Positions 27,380 through 36,687 of a DNA stretch of 64,000 nucleotides are shown here, one piece after another; position 1 is the first letter of the stretch, and every line of letters starts with the position of its first letter. The notes under the pieces are model-generated. The model saw only the letters and a program-made list of their open reading frames with translations. It had not been told where the DNA came from and did not search any database. The position numbers and the translations under genes were made by a program. The DNA comes from Stomorhina lunata (taxonomy: Eukaryota; Arthropoda; Insecta; Diptera; Rhiniidae): assembly GCA_933228675.1 (NCBI GenBank), contig OW121742.1:128255983-128319982 (forward strand). The letters run 5' to 3'.

Positions 27380-28120
27380 CTAAATACTATTATCTTTAAG
27401 ATTGTCATCAAAGTTTTCAAAGAGATATGAAACATCCTCATCAAAATCTTCTTCAATATCATCGAACTCATCTTCAACATCTTCCTCAGGGCAAAATTTA
27501 CAGCGACTTTCATTCACTCCATAATTGAGACAGGTGGATCCAACACATTCACAGCAGCCATCGTGAAACCATCTATAACTGCTGGCGCCAGTACTTCTAC
27601 AACTCTGTCGGCATTTGTTCCAAGAAACACAATGATCAAAATATACAACTGTGCAATTGACAGTTAAATTCTCCGAAATTTTACCCTTTTCACTTTGAAT
27701 CTTATTGGTGTTCAAATTGGCTCTTGACATTACCGATTCATAGTCAACAGGAAAGGTAAAAATATTCCAGCTATACTCCAATTCTTCGGTGGGTGATGAT
27801 ACTAAAACATCAAAAAGCTCGGGAACTCCCTCGAAATCTTCCACATGTGATTTTTTTGACAATGAAGTTTTTGTATCGATTTTAGTTTTGGGCGGACACA
27901 ACTCAACACAACCACAACAATCATCAAAATATTTTTTACCCATACAAAGGACACAGTCTTTGTAGCAAGACAAATCTTTCTGTTCGCATTTGCAACTTTG
28001 GGTTAGAATGCACTTTGATACTATGGAACCACAAATCTCCTCATTGCATGATGAGGCTATTGTATTTTGGACAACTTTTAAAATTAAGATGATTTTAATA
28101 ATATTGAAAACTTTTAACAT
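27380..28120 (-). CDS. tsg: Twisted gastrulation family BMP-binding protein
   Basis: A single-exon gene of 246 residues, close to the roughly 250 residues of Drosophila Tsg. It begins with a hydrophobic signal peptide (about residues 1-22) and then a cysteine-rich N-terminal domain (CNEEICGSIVSKC, CKCEQKDLSCYKDC, CCGCVELCPP) that in this family binds BMP/Dpp ligands. An EGVPELFD motif and a C-terminal cysteine-rich domain follow (CRSTGASSYRWFHDGCCECV, CLNYGVNESRC), the latter nearly invariant in Tsg. It ends in a Glu/Asp-rich tail. Tsg is a secreted cofactor that forms a complex with Sog/chordin and Dpp/Scw to shape dorsal BMP signalling. An NESR site and NLTVNCT are candidate N-glycosylation sites. 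Flies have paralogues (shrew, crossveinless), so the assignment to tsg itself rather than a paralogue is less certain than the family. The neighbour at 28469 is another early-embryo-type gene. Confidence 0.9.
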   Translation of the reverse strand: MLKVFNIIKIILILKVVQNTIASSCNEEICGSIVSKCILTQSCKCEQKDLSCYKDCVLCMGKKYFDDCCGCVELCPPKTKIDTKTSLSKKSHVEDFEGVPELFDVLVSSPTEELEYSWNIFTFPVDYESVMSRANLNTNKIQSEKGKISENLTVNCTVVYFDHCVSWNKCRQSCRSTGASSYRWFHDGCCECVGSTCLNYGVNESRCKFCPEEDVEDEFDDIEEDFDEDVSYLFENFDDNLKDNSI

Positions 28121-28310: not shown

Positions 28311-28468
28311 TAAAAAAGAATTTACACATCTATATATTATTTAAATTTTTGTTTAACAATTTATTACTAATTAATATGTTTTTATAAAATGTAGCTATGC
28401 TACTAAAAATATTTTCTAAGAAAATGTTTACAAACTAAATTGAAATATAAATTTTTGTCATTAACTTC

Positions 28469-28732
28469 TCAATATGTCAGCGACCTTCTGGCCTTATAAG
28501 ATGATTTGGAAGCATATGGAGTTACACGCGTTTGTAGTTTACGTTTGCTTTTAAATTCGGTAATCAGTGAGCTAGTCGAACTGGGTGTTGAGGGTACAAA
28601 TTTCTTTGTTTCAGCAGGAAATGTTGCATTGAGTTGATCTTTTTTGTTGTAGGGGCTGCACAAATCAAAATCATTTAACTTCAGTGATTTTAAATTCATG
28701 ATCAATTGTTGTGCCAAGGTAGTTTGATCCAT
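28469..28732 (-). CDS. Fruhstart/Z600-like mitotic inhibitor
   Basis: An intronless gene of 87 residues, basic and Ser/Thr-rich. The central KKFVPSTPSSTSS, the following FKSKRKLQTRVTPY and the C-terminal SSYKARRSLTY line up, as I recall it, with Drosophila Z600 (fruhstart), a protein of about 90 residues. Z600 delays mitosis in the blastoderm by binding the cyclin hydrophobic patch and blocking Cdk1 substrates. The RKL in KSKRKL is a plausible RxL cyclin-docking motif, and the SPY and TPSS sites could be Cdk targets. Small, intronless genes are typical of the earliest zygotic transcripts. Upstream on the coding strand lie CAGGTAA (28961-28955) and CAGGTAC (28931-28925), Zelda-type sites. A TATTTAAAG TATA-like element is at about 28830. 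The homology call rests on memory of a short protein and needs alignment. A decayed sister copy lies at 39963-40189. Confidence 0.6.
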   Translation of the reverse strand: MDQTTLAQQLIMNLKSLKLNDFDLCSPYNKKDQLNATFPAETKKFVPSTPSSTSSLITEFKSKRKLQTRVTPYASKSSYKARRSLTY

Positions 28733-28924
28733 TTTTATTTTTTCAATTGACTGCTAATGGCGGATGTTAATGGTAAAATAGATATAGAGGAACTGATGCT
28801 CTTACCTTAGGTACATGCCCTTTAAATACCTAATTGCGAAAACTAACTACATTTTACAGTTCGAAGTAATCTTGGATTAGTTGAAGAGGAAATATTTGCA
28901 TATCTTCTCAAAATTTTAAAATTA

Positions 28925-29250: not shown

Positions 29251-29693
29251 TGTTATGTTTTCTTATTTTAAAGTATTGCCGTCCAGGGACCCGCTTTAAA
29301 GGCTGGTGTATGTCAGGCTTTTTTCTATTTAAAATAAAAAACAATTATTTAGTGGATTGCCTACTAATAGTAGGTGTTGATTGGTTGCTTTATTTACAAA
29401 AATTCCCTCCTCTTAACTAAATGTTATTACTATTTATACTAATTTAACTATTGACTTATTTAATATATTATTGCGTACAATGCACTTTTCATTGTACGCG
29501 TTTATTGTAATTCAATACTATCAACTTAATTCTTATATTATTATTAATATATTATTGCGTACAATGCACTTTTCATTGTACGCGTTTATTGTAATTCAAT
29601 ACTATCAACTTAATTCTTAATTTGTTTCCAAAATGACAGCAATGCAGTTTGTCATTGTACGAGGGTGAATGTGAAAGTTTTCGACTCACAACA
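29251..29693 (-). repeat. 3' LTR of the retrotransposon
   Basis: 443 bp, TG...CA bounded (on the plus strand TGTTATGTTTT ... GACTCACAACA), identical by my reading to 39263-39705. It carries a tandem duplication of about 76 bp, each unit with a 10-bp hairpin (GCGTACAATG ... CATTGTACGC). In the sense direction AATAAA occurs in each unit (ACAATAAACGCG), a candidate polyadenylation signal. Confidence 0.95.
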
Positions 29694-29707
29694 TTCCTCC
29701 CCCCTTT
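29694..29707 (-). other. Polypurine tract of the retrotransposon
   Basis: Directly next to the 3' LTR the sense strand reads AAAGGGGGGAGGAA. It is the expected primer for plus-strand DNA synthesis. The uninterrupted purines and abutting LTR boundary make the call firm. Confidence 0.9.
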
Positions 29708-29888
29708 ACAGAAAGTACATCCAGGAACTGGATGTTCTTTAAAATTCTGTTTGACATTGACTTTATATGATCTGTTATTGACCGTTTATTTTGCCATGCT
29801 ATTGGAAGGCTTCAATAAGAATTAAGTTGATAAATTTTTAATATGTGTTGATAAACTTTCATTTTAAATATGTTATTATTATTATTAT

Positions 29889-29932
<44 letters not shown>

Positions 29933-31704
29933 TCCTTTTTTTTTTAAATTTCTTATGGTACCTAAAACTATGGAAATATTTCTTACAATGCTCTCAAAAA
30001 TGTTGGTTGTTGCTGTTGTTGTTTCTTGTTGATTTTTTTTTTTTTTCGAGTAGTTGAACTGGTTGTAGATGTGTTGTAGCTGATGTTGTTGTTAATGTTG
30101 TTTTTCGTAACTGAAATTTCTTATAGGTATCGTAAAATAGGCAGTTATTGGATGTAGTAATAGTGTTATTTCAGATTATTTCCTGCACAAACTAACAATG
30201 TAGCAGGCTAGAATCCTTCTTTTGATCGGTCTATTCTTTATATAGACTATCAAATCGACGTTGGTTTCAATACATCTTCAGGCAAAAAGTATATGAATGG
30301 TAGCCAAAACAAACACATGACGCATTTTGTTTCTTAGGAAACCAATTGGCAAGAATAGCCACTACTGAAGAGTATGTTTCATTTGATTGCCAGCGAAGAA
30401 TTGAGTAACACATAGTTTCTTTATCTAGAATGACATCCAGCGGTTTATGAACCCGAATATGGGGCTGTTACATAACTTAGACTGCTGTTATACAACTTAG
30501 TCTGCATATAAAAACAAATTTCAACATTTACTCCAGGGAGATCTAATACAAGAACTTTTAATTAGATCCTCGAACTGGGGAAGTCCCGTACATCTTCAAT
30601 TCCGCCAGAGATAATCACGTTGTAGGTTAGATGTTTATGGACTTTACTTGCATCTTAGAGGGCTATACTAACATTCAGCATGTGCTCTTTGATTGCAACA
30701 ACAGACAACTTGACTTTTGTTTTGATCTGCAATTGGTTGACACTGAGTCGGTTGCATTGAAATGTTGCGACTGCTCCACATCTAAGCTTTCCAGAGATGA
30801 TAAATCATTAACTGCTTATGTTGGAGAGCACCGTACTGAGAATTAACCTATTCTTACTTATTGATCTAGAGATACATATTTATAAATTCTTTTCTTTTGA
30901 CTTACAATTATATATGTTTATTTATATATTTATATGTATATTTTTTGCAAATGCTTATCATGTAATACTATGTACATATATAGTGTGTTGTTATTATTTT
31001 TAATAATTTTTTTCTTTTTTTTTTTTAACTTTATTTGTTGCTTTTGTTTCAAATTTCAACTGATATGTCAGCACTTTATTCATTAAAAAGTGAGTTCAGT
31101 TTAATTTTTTCAAAAAAAAATTATAAAAAGTTTTTTTTTTATAATTTTTTTTTTTATAAAGAGAAAAAGGAATTATTACACTTTAGCTGTTTAAACGATT
31201 TCAATAGAAAATTATTCGCGGGCTTATAATTTTCAAAAAATCGACAGAAAAATGCAGATTAAAAAATCTTTGGCATCTTAACAGTTTAAATAAAAAATTT
31301 TTTAAATTAGACCTTTTTTTTTTTTTTTTTTTTTGGTAAATAATGCAAAAGTTAATTTAAAAATTTTGTACTTATAATATTTTCTAAATTTTATTATACA
31401 CAAATTTTTGTTTAAACATTTTTATTTTTAAAATACAAAAATTTGTTTTGTTTGTTCTCATTACTTCTTTCTAATGGTTTTTCTTTGTTTTGCAGGCTTC
31501 AAACCTGTAGTCGATTAACGTCGAAGTGGTTCGATTCCACCTGGGGGGCGCCAACAAAATTTAGTCATCCCATATCATATAATAAATTACTAATTTGTTT
31601 CTATCAGGTTGTTATTATTATTTTACCATTTTAACATGATTTCAACATCGTTGCTGTTTCTTTTTTGTTTTCAATTTTACGTGGAAGTTTAACATCATAT
31701 TTAT
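29708..31704 (-). other. Non-coding 3' internal region of the retrotransposon
   Basis: About 2 kb between the USP stop codon and the polypurine tract. No env-like frame or any other coding frame is supportable on either strand. In the sense direction there is an unbroken run of 38 A (29928-29891), a run of 21 A (31334-31314) and further A-rich tracts. Candidate AATAAA signals lie near 31391 and 31421. It also holds the 63-bp tRNA-Sec-derived piece (31491-31553). The middle part (about 30180-30850) has more balanced base composition. On the plus strand it shows a phrase YTNIQHVLFDC that faintly recalls the C-terminal region of LINE reverse transcriptases. One explanation is a captured host 3' UTR with poly(A) plus later inserts. 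Confidence 0.6.
31491..31553 (+). pseudogene. 3' part of selenocysteine tRNA, with CCA
   Basis: The 63 bp read, in plus orientation: anticodon stem GCAGG, loop CTTCAAA with anticodon TCA, stem CCTGT, a long variable arm, a perfect T arm (GTGG TTCGATT CCAC), and the acceptor 3' strand CTGGGGGGC, discriminator G and CCA. UCA anticodon, long extra arm and the GCAGGCTTCAAACCTGTAG core are diagnostic of eukaryotic tRNA-Sec. The 5' acceptor strand and D arm are missing, replaced by T-rich DNA, so it cannot be a functional gene. Eukaryotic tRNA genes do not encode CCA, so the copy came from mature tRNA by reverse transcription. Relative to the retrotransposon it is antisense: the element's RNA begins this segment TGGCGCC, exactly as an over-extended primer binding site would. 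Confidence 0.85.
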
Positions 31705-34700
31705 TTACACACGTTCATAGAATAATATATAAGCACTGGACGAGACAAGATTATGTTCCGACAATGAATCACTCACAAGATTATCATTGAATTTATGCCA
31801 TTTCTTTGAGACAGGATGTTTGCAAATAGCTACATAATGTCCACCCGCAGTTGAACCCATATGATTTGTGACACTATATAAGGAATAGCAAATATTTGGG
31901 TTAGCATTGGCATCATAAGGACCCATATTCAATTCACGTTCACCCGTGGAAAATTCGACAATATTCGAGAGTTTACTCTTCAATGTCTCAGAAAAACGTT
32001 TTAAATGTATAACAAGATACTTTGGAAATCGTTGAATTTTAAAGTTTTTTGTACATTTTCGCCGCGTTTGACATTTTGAACATGTAGGCATGTCGTCGCC
32101 CTCCAAAACCTCCTCGCGTAAAAGCAAATCCAAGCAGGTGTCAAGCTTACAACTTGACGATGAAGGTAGGGGAACGCTTAAATCCCAAAAGGGATCAAAA
32201 GTAACGCTAGTATTGCCGCACGTGGTACATCTTAATGTACTCTTAAGTTGACCTACAAATAAATCACGTATTAAAGAATTCTCATGACGGCCATACCATT
32301 TCCAAGTAAGTTCGGCCTTTTTATTGTCACTTAAATTATCATCTATTTTTAAATGTTCACCCTTTGTACCAGTATTGAGGGCACCATGCAACGAATCCAA
32401 AAATAATCGTAAAAATTCTTGAGCGTCTTGTTGATTGTAGTTACTGTACATGTGATATTTGGCAGAAAAGGCTCGTTTTAATTCCGTAGGTGTTACGGTG
32501 TTTACATTACCTCTCCACATTTCCTTAATTAATTTGGAAAGCTCAAATAAGATTTGTTGATTTTTGGACGTTGTAGATTTCGTTGCATTATGATTTAGTA
32601 AGAATTTTGTCAATTCATTTGTGTGATTAAAACACTGAATAATGGTGTTCATAAAACAAGTATTACCGATATTTCTTAGACCACATAAGCCTTCTGTATT
32701 ATCGTCCGTACTATTATGGGACGTGGTAGAAGTCAACAATGGTCCTGTACTATCTCTATCATAGGAATGCGATGAAGTGCGAACACCCTTGTCTTCTGTA
32801 CTATCACAAAGATTGAATTTTTCTATAGAAGCACTAATACCTTTTGAATCACTCGCCGTTTCGTGACGCTGTTCACTACCCGATGAGGTTATTCTGTCGT
32901 TAGTATGTTTGTAAGTATTCTTTTTTTCAAAGAATAGACTATAATTCTTTGGCGACGATGATTTGTCGGTTGACACTATTTGTTCTTGGTTTTGTCTGTA
33001 AAGCTTGACCAAATTACGGTGTAGAATCTTCTGCTTTCCTTTCGCTAGTATTTGAACATTAACTGGGGAGGGAATACCTGTCACTTTATAAGGCCCCTCC
33101 CATAGGGGTGAGAGCTTGTTTTTCCGTGTTTGATTCCTTACCAACACTTGATCACCTATATGAATTATACTATTTTTTGCATTTTTGTCATACCGTTCTT
33201 TCGCTTTTATTTTTGCCTTTATCTGATGTTTGCGCGCCATCTCGTATGCACGCTGAATTTGGTACTTGAGAAATTTTGGATAGTCATAAGGATTGTATAA
33301 AGGAGTACTAACCTTAAGATTCGACGGTAAAGGTGCGTCAAAACCATAGAGTACTCTAAAGGGAGTTTGGTTGGTGGCTGTATGATCTGTATGGTTATGC
33401 ACATGCATAGCCGAAGGCAACCACTGATCCCAGTTTGATCCGTCCTCTTTTGCAAAACTCCTTAGATATTCTGTAAGTGGTCGATGGCTTCTTTCCAACG
33501 ACCCGTTTGCTTGAGGGTGGTATGGAGTGATATGTTGTTTCTTTATCCTCAAAAGTTTACAGACACTTCCGAAAAGCTTGGAAGTGAAATTCGAGCCATT
33601 GTCCGTTATTAATTTTGTTGGAATACCATACTTGGTTATGATTTCACTGTAAAAAATTTTCGCCACCGTTTCAGCCTCCGCATCCGGCATTGGTGCACAA
33701 ATAAAAAATTTCGACAAATCGTCTTGAAAAGTGAGAATGTATTTGTTGCCTGCAGTGGTGGTTGGCAAAGGGCCCACCATGTCCATATAAACTTTTTCAA
33801 ATGGTCTTTGCGGTGTGTCGGTTAACACCATTTGTTCTTTGCCGACTGGTCCGCACTTGTTCTTTTGGCACTTCTGACACTTTCTTATATAATTGTTAAT
33901 ATCCCGTTGCATACCTTTCCATCTGTATTGTCTCCTAATTCGCCTTATGGTCTTCCAGACACCCTGGTGCCCACCTAAAGGCGAGTCATGAAAGCTTCGA
34001 AGAACTTCTTCGATGTCCTTTCTGTCGGTTAAAATTTTAACGGCATCTCTGTGCTCCATACTGAAATTTTCCTCAGCGATCCTTTCTTCTGATGAATCTT
34101 CATTATTTTGAGCTTCTTTTATGCTTGTTTTATTTAACTCTCTTTTTTGAGCTCTGGTAACAACCTGTATTTTCTGGTCTTCTACAGGAAGTCGGCTCAG
34201 CGCATCAGCATTTAAGTTGGTTTTTCCCGGCTTGTAGGCAATGTCGAATTCATACTCCGACAATTTATGCCTGAACCGAGCAAGTCTCGAAGTCTGGTCT
34301 TTTAGGTTTGCAATGCCCCTCAAGGGTTGGTGATCCGTGAATACAGTAAAAGGTCGTCCCAATAAATAGGGGCGGAAAGTGCGTGTCGCCCACACTATGC
34401 CTAACATTTCCTTTTCAATTGTTGAGTACCTTTTTTCAGTGTCGCTTAAGGTCCTACTCGCGAATGCTATGGGGTGGTCTTTGCCATTCCTTAGCTGTGA
34501 AAGTACTGCTCCCAGTGCTTCGTTGCTAGCATCTGTGGTTACACGGAAAGATTCCGAAAAGTCTGGGTAAATTAGAATGGGAGGACTAATAATGTTTTCC
34601 TTAATTCTATTAAAGGCTTGTTGGCACTCCTTTGTCCAGACAAATTTGGAGTTTTTCTTGAGCAGGCGGGTTATTGGTGATGCCAGCTCCGCCATACCCT

Positions 34701-36687: not shown

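What the first reader, a model, noticed from the sequence alone, without database searches (positions are those of the whole stretch)
31705..36687. A Gypsy-type retrotransposon whose Pol polyprotein ends in a complete ubiquitin-specific protease
One open frame runs from protease through RT, RNase H and integrase into a full USP2-type deubiquitinase, inside an element with LTRs, PBS, PPT and target duplication. Known: LTR elements normally end Pol after integrase or follow it with env. I know of no described Ty3/Gypsy lineage with a C-terminal USP. Inferred: the element carries the enzyme into particles or infected cells and may remove ubiquitin from Gag, integrase or a host restriction or immune factor (Drosophila Usp2 is reported to act on IMD signalling).
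Basis: partly seen in the sequence, partly recalled or inferred. Interest (0 to 1): 0.97.

Follow-up and report, generated by a model that had tools for sequence, protein, structure and literature searches.

The report
Jumping gene carrying a stolen deubiquitinase
A young, structurally complete virus-like jumping gene, most likely in a fly, has the ubiquitin-removing enzyme Usp2, copied from a fly messenger RNA, fused to the end of its DNA-inserting enzyme, so the element may use the host's own ubiquitin eraser to protect itself.

Summary
A 10.5-kb Ty3/Gypsy element (29251-39705, minus strand) has two identical 443-bp LTRs, an ATTG target duplication, a PBS, a PPT, an intact gag, and one uninterrupted pol frame (36687-31705) reading PR-RT-RNase H-integrase-USP. 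The USP part is a complete USP2-type domain with Cys1288, His1561, Asn1578 and both zinc CxxC pairs. Upstream it continues into Usp2-specific linker sequence and crosses, without an intron, a splice junction inferred from Usp2 isoforms, so it was copied from a spliced Usp2 mRNA. In a Usp2 tree it falls among calyptrate flies, beside blowflies, on a long branch. The catalytic part has no indels, while the linker has shrunk in frame. The closest listed relative's Pol (75% identical) stops just after integrase. No second copy of this junction was seen in the listed database rows; the host genome could not be reached. The habit recurs, though. Two relatives in the same RT clade carry a tyrosine phosphatase in the same place, and two others carry a fast-diverging USP between PR and RT. 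Most likely the enzyme is packaged with integrase and strips ubiquitin from particle or integration-complex proteins. That step is inferred; activity is untested.

The parts
39263..39705 (-). 5' LTR (443 bp)
   Evidence: identical to the 3' LTR, 443/443; TG...CA ends and ATTG target duplication outside
29251..29693 (-). 3' LTR (443 bp)
39250..39259 (-). primer-binding site TGGCGCAGCC, 3 nt after the 5' LTR (3' limit approximate)
   Evidence: sequence read; TGG complements a tRNA CCA end; identity of the primer tRNA not tested
29694..29707 (-). polypurine tract directly before the 3' LTR
   Evidence: sequence read
36651..38654 (-). gag ORF, 667 aa, with three C-x2-C-x4-H-x4-C knuckles
36678..36684 (-). 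GGGAAAT, a -1 frameshift-type heptamer in gag phase inside the gag/pol overlap (36651-36687)
   Evidence: phase computed; frame difference; no significant downstream fold (z -0.45)
31705..36687 (-). pol open frame including the USP; ORF tool start at 36519 gives 1604 aa
36031..36249 (-). aspartic protease (DTG at residue 91 to GVLGRD at 163)
   Evidence: motifs only
34828..35319 (-). reverse transcriptase (YLDD at 514)
   Evidence: PF00078 E=1.8e-37
34252..34638 (-). RNase H
   Evidence: PF17917 and PF17919
32995..34029 (-). integrase with H2C2, DDE core and GPY motif; homology to other Gypsy Pol proteins ends about residue 1175
32701..32970 (-). Usp2-derived linker (residues 1184-1273), shortened in frame
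   Evidence: aligns to Usp2 upstream sequence of Lucilia and Cochliomyia; isoforms
31708..32700 (-). USP catalytic domain (residues 1274-1604), Cys1288, His1561, Asn1578, CxxC 1431 and 1480
29708..31704 (-). non-coding 3' region, A-rich; may include Usp2 3' UTR (untested)
   Evidence: 28% GC, longest sense-strand frame 66 codons

Best explanation
This is a recently inserted, structurally intact Ty3/Gypsy element without env. An ancestor picked up a spliced calyptrate-fly Usp2 mRNA during reverse transcription, in frame just after integrase (shown by anatomy; template switching is inferred). A -1 frameshift at GGGAAAT would make a Gag-Pol that ends in IN-USP (inferred from phase). There is no in-frame ATG between the end of integrase and the catalytic Cys, so the USP should be made only as part of Pol and be packaged with integrase. 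Inferred: in the particle or the integration complex it removes ubiquitin from Gag, integrase or nearby host proteins and so guards them against proteasomal loss. Nothing here shows enzymatic activity.
For: Single frame and domains. Complete element with identical LTRs and TSD. Usp2 linker homology and a crossed splice junction. Placement beside four blowfly rows (92/90, moderate) within calyptrates (99/97), branch 0.18 against 0.0023-0.037 for those four. Of 328 catalytic positions 40 differ from the blowfly majority, with no indel against any of the four rows. Changes avoid columns invariant in 30 fly Usp2: 12 of 162 against 28 of 166 (Fisher p=0.011); neutral simulations put 20.5-20.9 changes there on average, minimum 12. 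Changes are also milder (mean BLOSUM62 0.30 against -0.40 to -0.49 simulated). Relatives in the same 11-row RT clade carry a tyrosine phosphatase with intact loop at the same place. Two others carry a USP between PR and RT with Cys, His and Asp kept.
Against: No second copy of this junction among the listed rows or in viral contigs. The host genome was out of reach, so dN/dS is unmeasured and the host's own Usp2 is unseen. The selection signal is modest: simulations stayed stop-free in 5.6-9.6% of runs; the highest simulated mean BLOSUM was 0.28, 0.38 and 0.41 for three transition weights, so the observed 0.30 is extreme but not outside all of them; 12 Diptera-invariant columns have changed; and simulations started from the element's own codons. 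USP third codon positions are still host-gene-like rather than pol-like, which allows a fairly recent capture. In P0223 the Cys box is degenerate, so accessory USPs can decay. Activity, packaging, frameshifting and cleavage are untested.
Confidence: 0.5

Rival explanations
1. Passenger: a recent one-off transduction of Usp2, carried along by an active element without benefit to it, like captured cellular fragments in other LTR elements.
For: Only one copy seen; host-like codon composition of the USP; modest selection signal; closest listed relative P0121 lacks it.
Against: The USP differs from blowfly Usp2 at 40 of 328 sites, including 12 columns invariant in 30 flies, so it seems to have evolved outside the host gene for some time. 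The catalytic part kept its frame and exact length while the linker lost pieces in frame. Separate enzyme captures in relatives suggest usefulness.
Confidence: 0.27
2. Trans-acting suppressor: the enzyme acts on a host immune or restriction factor, for instance Imd, after release from Pol.
For: Drosophila USP2 deubiquitinates Imd and lowers immune gene expression when overexpressed (PMC4140012). Fast divergence of accessory domains in relatives (PTP 41% against PR-IN 62%; USP 27% against RT-RNase H 69%) is what a host conflict would give.
Against: Expression only as the tail of a presumed frameshift product suggests small amounts; no env seen and no sign of transmission between cells. I know of no role of IMD against retrotransposons (recalled, not searched). 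Fast divergence could also be weak constraint.
Confidence: 0.15
3. Integration helper: the USP works in the nucleus with integrase on chromatin or DNA-repair proteins, as was suggested for Ginger1 transposases.
For: Same order, Gypsy-type integrase then ubiquitin/SUMO protease, in Ginger1 (PMC2836005, passages).
Against: The protease families differ (OTU, Ulp1 against USP) and nothing in this element points to nuclear substrates.
Confidence: 0.2
4. Assembly chimera of a Gypsy element and a host Usp2 exon.
For: Raw reads were not seen.
Against: The USP DNA crosses a Usp2 splice junction without an intron, is in frame, and lies between identical LTRs with a target duplication.
Confidence: 0.03

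Closest known systems
Ginger1 DNA transposons (PMC2836005, passages read)
   Same: Gypsy-type integrase followed by a C-terminal protease acting on ubiquitin or SUMO; the authors suspected a role in transposition. The same passages mention a Trichomonas transposase with a Peptidase C19 (USP) domain.
   Different: Cut-and-paste DNA transposons with TIRs, not LTR retroelements; Ginger1 has OTU or Ulp1, not USP.
Orchid Ty3/Gypsy elements with an AlkB m6A demethylase (PMC9289625; abstract, passages and section 12 read)
   Same: Ty3/Gypsy element that took up a host enzyme which may counter host control.
   Different: Separate additional ORF in 25-kb plant elements, in 38 and 23 consensus sequences of two species and shown active in vitro; not a Pol fusion, not a deubiquitinase.
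Burro giant Gypsy-like elements of planarians (PMC6431247, passages)
   Same: Gypsy-like elements with extra domains linked to ubiquitin and apoptosis (MATH_TRAF_C, SUMO-like, BIR, BCL2-like). The same review says LTR elements can capture ORFs downstream of pol.
   Different: Over 30 kb in total; no USP named in the passages seen.
Bs1 of maize and other transduced host genes (named in PMC7264820, passages)
   Same: Host gene sequences taken into an LTR element.
   Different: Plant element; not a complete C-terminal enzyme fused after integrase, as far as I recall.
Retroviral transduction of cellular genes (recalled, no call)
   Same: A spliced host mRNA captured by reverse transcription and fused to gag-pol.
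   Different: Transduced oncogenes usually replace viral genes; here gag and pol are whole.

Membership tests
Ty3/Gypsy LTR retrotransposon (Metaviridae) | PR-RT-RNase H-IN order in Pol | tested here: met
   best solved match Ty3 Gag-Pol; protease by motif only
Ty3/Gypsy LTR retrotransposon (Metaviridae) | LTRs, short target duplication, PBS, PPT | tested here: met
Ty3/Gypsy LTR retrotransposon (Metaviridae) | GPY/F motif at the integrase C-terminus | tested here: met
   WEGPY at residues 1140-1144, seen in the alignment
Errantivirus (insect endogenous retrovirus) | env gene downstream of pol | tested here: not met
   no sense-strand frame over 66 codons in 29694-31704; no ORF of 100 aa or more there on either strand
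Chromovirus | chromodomain at the Pol C-terminus | tested here: not met
   no such Pfam hit at E 0.001; UCH instead
USP2 group of ubiquitin-specific proteases (C19) | catalytic Cys, His, Asn/Asp and zinc CxxC pairs | tested here: met
   the roles of these residues are recalled
USP2 group of ubiquitin-specific proteases (C19) | nearest to Usp2 proteins | tested here: met
   best hits Usp2; nested in calyptrate Usp2, 31 rows; that tree held Usp2 and no other USP
USP2 group of ubiquitin-specific proteases (C19) | deubiquitinating activity | not testable with these tools
Ginger1 DNA transposon | TIRs, no RT, OTU or Ulp1 domain | tested here: not met
   RT and LTRs present, USP domain

The most novel reading that the evidence does not exclude
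A branch of animal Ty3/Gypsy elements repeatedly takes up host enzymes that erase protein modifications. Examples are Usp2 or a receptor-type tyrosine phosphatase after integrase, and another USP between protease and RT. They are kept as Pol domains that evolve fast against the host, so that deubiquitination and dephosphorylation become part of the particle's own equipment.
Probability: 0.4. Interest if true: 0.92.

Novelty: new variant of a known kind. Interest (0 to 1): 0.82.

Why it matters
If the enzyme is active in particles, it would show that ubiquitin marking is a real barrier to LTR retrotransposons in animals, strong enough to select for carrying an eraser. It would also give a natural system in which substrates can be found by comparing elements with and without the domain. 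The parallel phosphatase and second USP captures would turn a curiosity into a rule about which host pathways restrain these elements.

Tried and rejected
The genome search in the window's own assembly (for other copies, the host Usp2 gene and dN/dS) did not complete. Three viral-contig scans gave no relatives. A downstream RNA structure at the frameshift site was not significant. No splice site or independent start that would express the USP alone was established: the first in-frame ATG after residue 1175 is residue 1290, behind the catalytic Cys, and one acceptor-like tract lies within the integrase reading frame. The idea that P0139's Herpes_teg_N match is another deubiquitinase was dropped, because it is below Pfam's cut-off (19.1 against 25 bits). 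The claim that P0127 lacks the phosphatase loop came from an over-strict pattern and was withdrawn. An assembly chimera was considered and judged unlikely.

Full report
What is there. The window holds a Ty3/Gypsy element on the minus strand, 29251-39705; no other stretch of the window matched its pieces or its Pol. Its LTRs (29251-29693, 39263-39705) are 443 bp and identical, so the insertion is young. The flanks repeat ATTG; a TGGCGCAGCC primer site lies 3 nt inside the 5' LTR and a purine tract before the 3' LTR. Gag is 36651-38654 with three CCHC knuckles. It overlaps gag by 37 nt in the -1 frame, and GGGAAAT at 36684-36678 lies in the phase needed for a -1 shift. The fold after it is not unusual (z -0.45), so frameshifting is an inference.

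The USP. Pfam places UCH at residues 1279-1601 after RT, RNase H and integrase. By sequence the best solved match is USP2 (3nhe, 291.7 bits), and the alignment keeps Cys1288, His1561, Asn1578 and both zinc CxxC pairs (that these are the catalytic and zinc residues is recalled knowledge). The nearest proteins are Usp2 of blowflies, 84% over the aligned 69% of a 520-aa query for Lucilia cuprina.

It came from a spliced mRNA. Homology to other Gypsy Pol proteins ends at about residues 1172-1177 in most of the 120 listed relatives. From about residue 1184 the sequence matches the Usp2 linker far upstream of the catalytic domain (SLxFEK...ASIEKFN; Lucilia sericata 377-430), then skips about 140 Usp2 residues in frame, then goes on into the catalytic domain. 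Usp2 isoforms of Lucilia differ upstream of VRNSATLRS/VRSSATLRS and agree after it, which I take to mark a splice junction; no fly gene was read. The element has matching sequence on both sides of it with no intron. The domain ends where blowfly Usp2 ends. Template switching onto a packaged mRNA is the usual explanation and is inferred here.

How old the capture is. In a tree of 31 rows (Hermetia was dropped because the search motif was missing) the element falls with four blowfly rows (92/90, moderate, order within the group unresolved) inside calyptrates (99/97). Its branch is 0.18, against 0.0023-0.037 for those four. Against the blowfly majority 40 of 328 catalytic residues differ, with no indel. 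Changes hit 12 of 162 columns invariant in 30 fly Usp2 and 28 of 166 variable ones (Fisher p=0.011). Neutral simulations from the element's own codons put 20.5-20.9 changes in the invariant columns on average (minimum 12). The mean BLOSUM62 of the changes is 0.30 against simulated means of -0.40 to -0.49 with maxima of 0.28, 0.38 and 0.41. The same simulations leave no stop in 5.6-9.6% of runs. So the case for purifying selection is moderate, not decisive. Against a very old capture, USP third positions (T 0.41, GC 0.31) resemble the neighbouring host gene tsg (T 0.42, GC 0.32), not integrase (T 0.28, GC 0.41). I read this as a capture well before this insertion but after the calyptrate radiation began. 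The species of the window is unknown to me; that it is a fly is inferred from the USP's closest matches.

Is it alone? Each of three protein searches listed 120 rows out of 3583, 2929 and 4430 proteins under the cut-off, after a cap of about 8000 scored candidates each. No listed row joins integrase to a C-terminal USP; unlisted rows were not seen. The viral-contig scan found none. The own-genome search did not complete. The closest Pol, P0121 (75% identical over 70% of the query), ends 10 residues after integrase; I could not read its contig, so a cut end is not excluded. Of 120 relatives 111 end within 33 residues of it. The nine others are P0127 and P0128 plus seven proteins of over 2200 aa, which I take for gene-model fusions without having tested it.

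The pattern around it. In an RT tree of 121 rows (quick method, SH-aLRT only) the element pairs with P0121 (100) in an 11-row clade (99) that also contains P0127 and P0128 (sisters, 99). Those two carry a receptor-type-like tyrosine phosphatase in the same place, after integrase (PF00102 E=4e-68 and 1.2e-70; best solved phosphatase match of P0127 is RPTP alpha). Both keep HCSAGIGR. Their phosphatases are 41% identical while PR-IN is 62%. P0206 and P0223 (sisters, 99, another clade) carry a USP between protease and RT, 27% identical to each other against 69% for RT-RNase H. Aligned with Usp2, both keep Cys, His and Asp, though the Cys box of P0223 is degenerate. Three of the 120 rows carry a macro domain and two a G-patch by the precomputed table. 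So, by parsimony, the Usp2 fusion is one of at least three separate enzyme gains among these relatives. This is my main reason for taking it as more than a passenger. These relatives are from unnamed assemblies, so chimeras cannot be excluded, though the sister pairs argue against it.

How it may work. There is no in-frame ATG between residue 1175 and the catalytic Cys (first at 1290), so the enzyme should appear only as the tail of Gag-Pol, be packaged and sit next to integrase. The simplest use is to keep Gag, integrase or the integration complex free of degradative ubiquitin. Ginger1 transposons show the same order with OTU or Ulp1, and the same paper mentions a Trichomonas transposase with a Peptidase C19 domain (PMC2836005, passages); there the authors suggested a part in repair during or after transposition. 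That Ty3 particle formation in stressed yeast is blocked through ubiquitin is recalled from the literature; my search did not list that paper.

Novelty. Paper searches for a USP or deubiquitinase in LTR elements listed no title or abstract describing such a case. They cover one open-access library; papers other than the five named here were seen as listings only, including the three and the two that hold every search term. The kind (an LTR element with a captured host enzyme) is known; a Pol that ends in a complete Usp2 is, to my knowledge, new.

Noticed in passing
31477-31552 (+): 3' part of a selenocysteine tRNA followed by CCA, antisense to the element, about 150 nt after the pol stop (Rfam RF01852 at 31477-31549, 37.8 bits, below the gathering score of 47). 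It looks like a reverse-transcribed tRNA piece.
   Followed up: partly
28409-28905 and 39783-40250: Inverted repeats (74-79%) flank the element, which seems to sit inside another, older repeat.
   Followed up: no
27380-28120 (-): Uninterrupted ORF with both Tsg Pfam domains (twisted gastrulation); the element lies about 1.1 kb upstream of its start codon.
   Followed up: no
29694-31704: Long A-tracts (sense strand) in the non-coding 3' region: 38 at 29891-29928 and 21 at 31314-31334; possibly the poly(A) of a captured mRNA.
   Followed up: no
29460-29619 and 39472-39631: Each LTR contains a direct repeat of 76 identical bases at a spacing of 84.
   Followed up: no
P0194, P0209, P0235 (relatives): Macro domain listed in three relatives, which also have about 180-240 residues between RNase H and integrase, against 53 in the element; many relatives in that part of the tree have similar inserts. 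Whether the macro domain lies in the insert was not tested.
   Followed up: partly
P0139 residues 743-891: Weak match, below cut-off, to the herpesvirus tegument N-terminal region, a deubiquitinase family by recall, between RNase H and integrase.
   Followed up: no
38829-38871 and 39078-39120: Imperfect direct repeat (86% over 43 nt) in the element's 5' leader.
   Followed up: no
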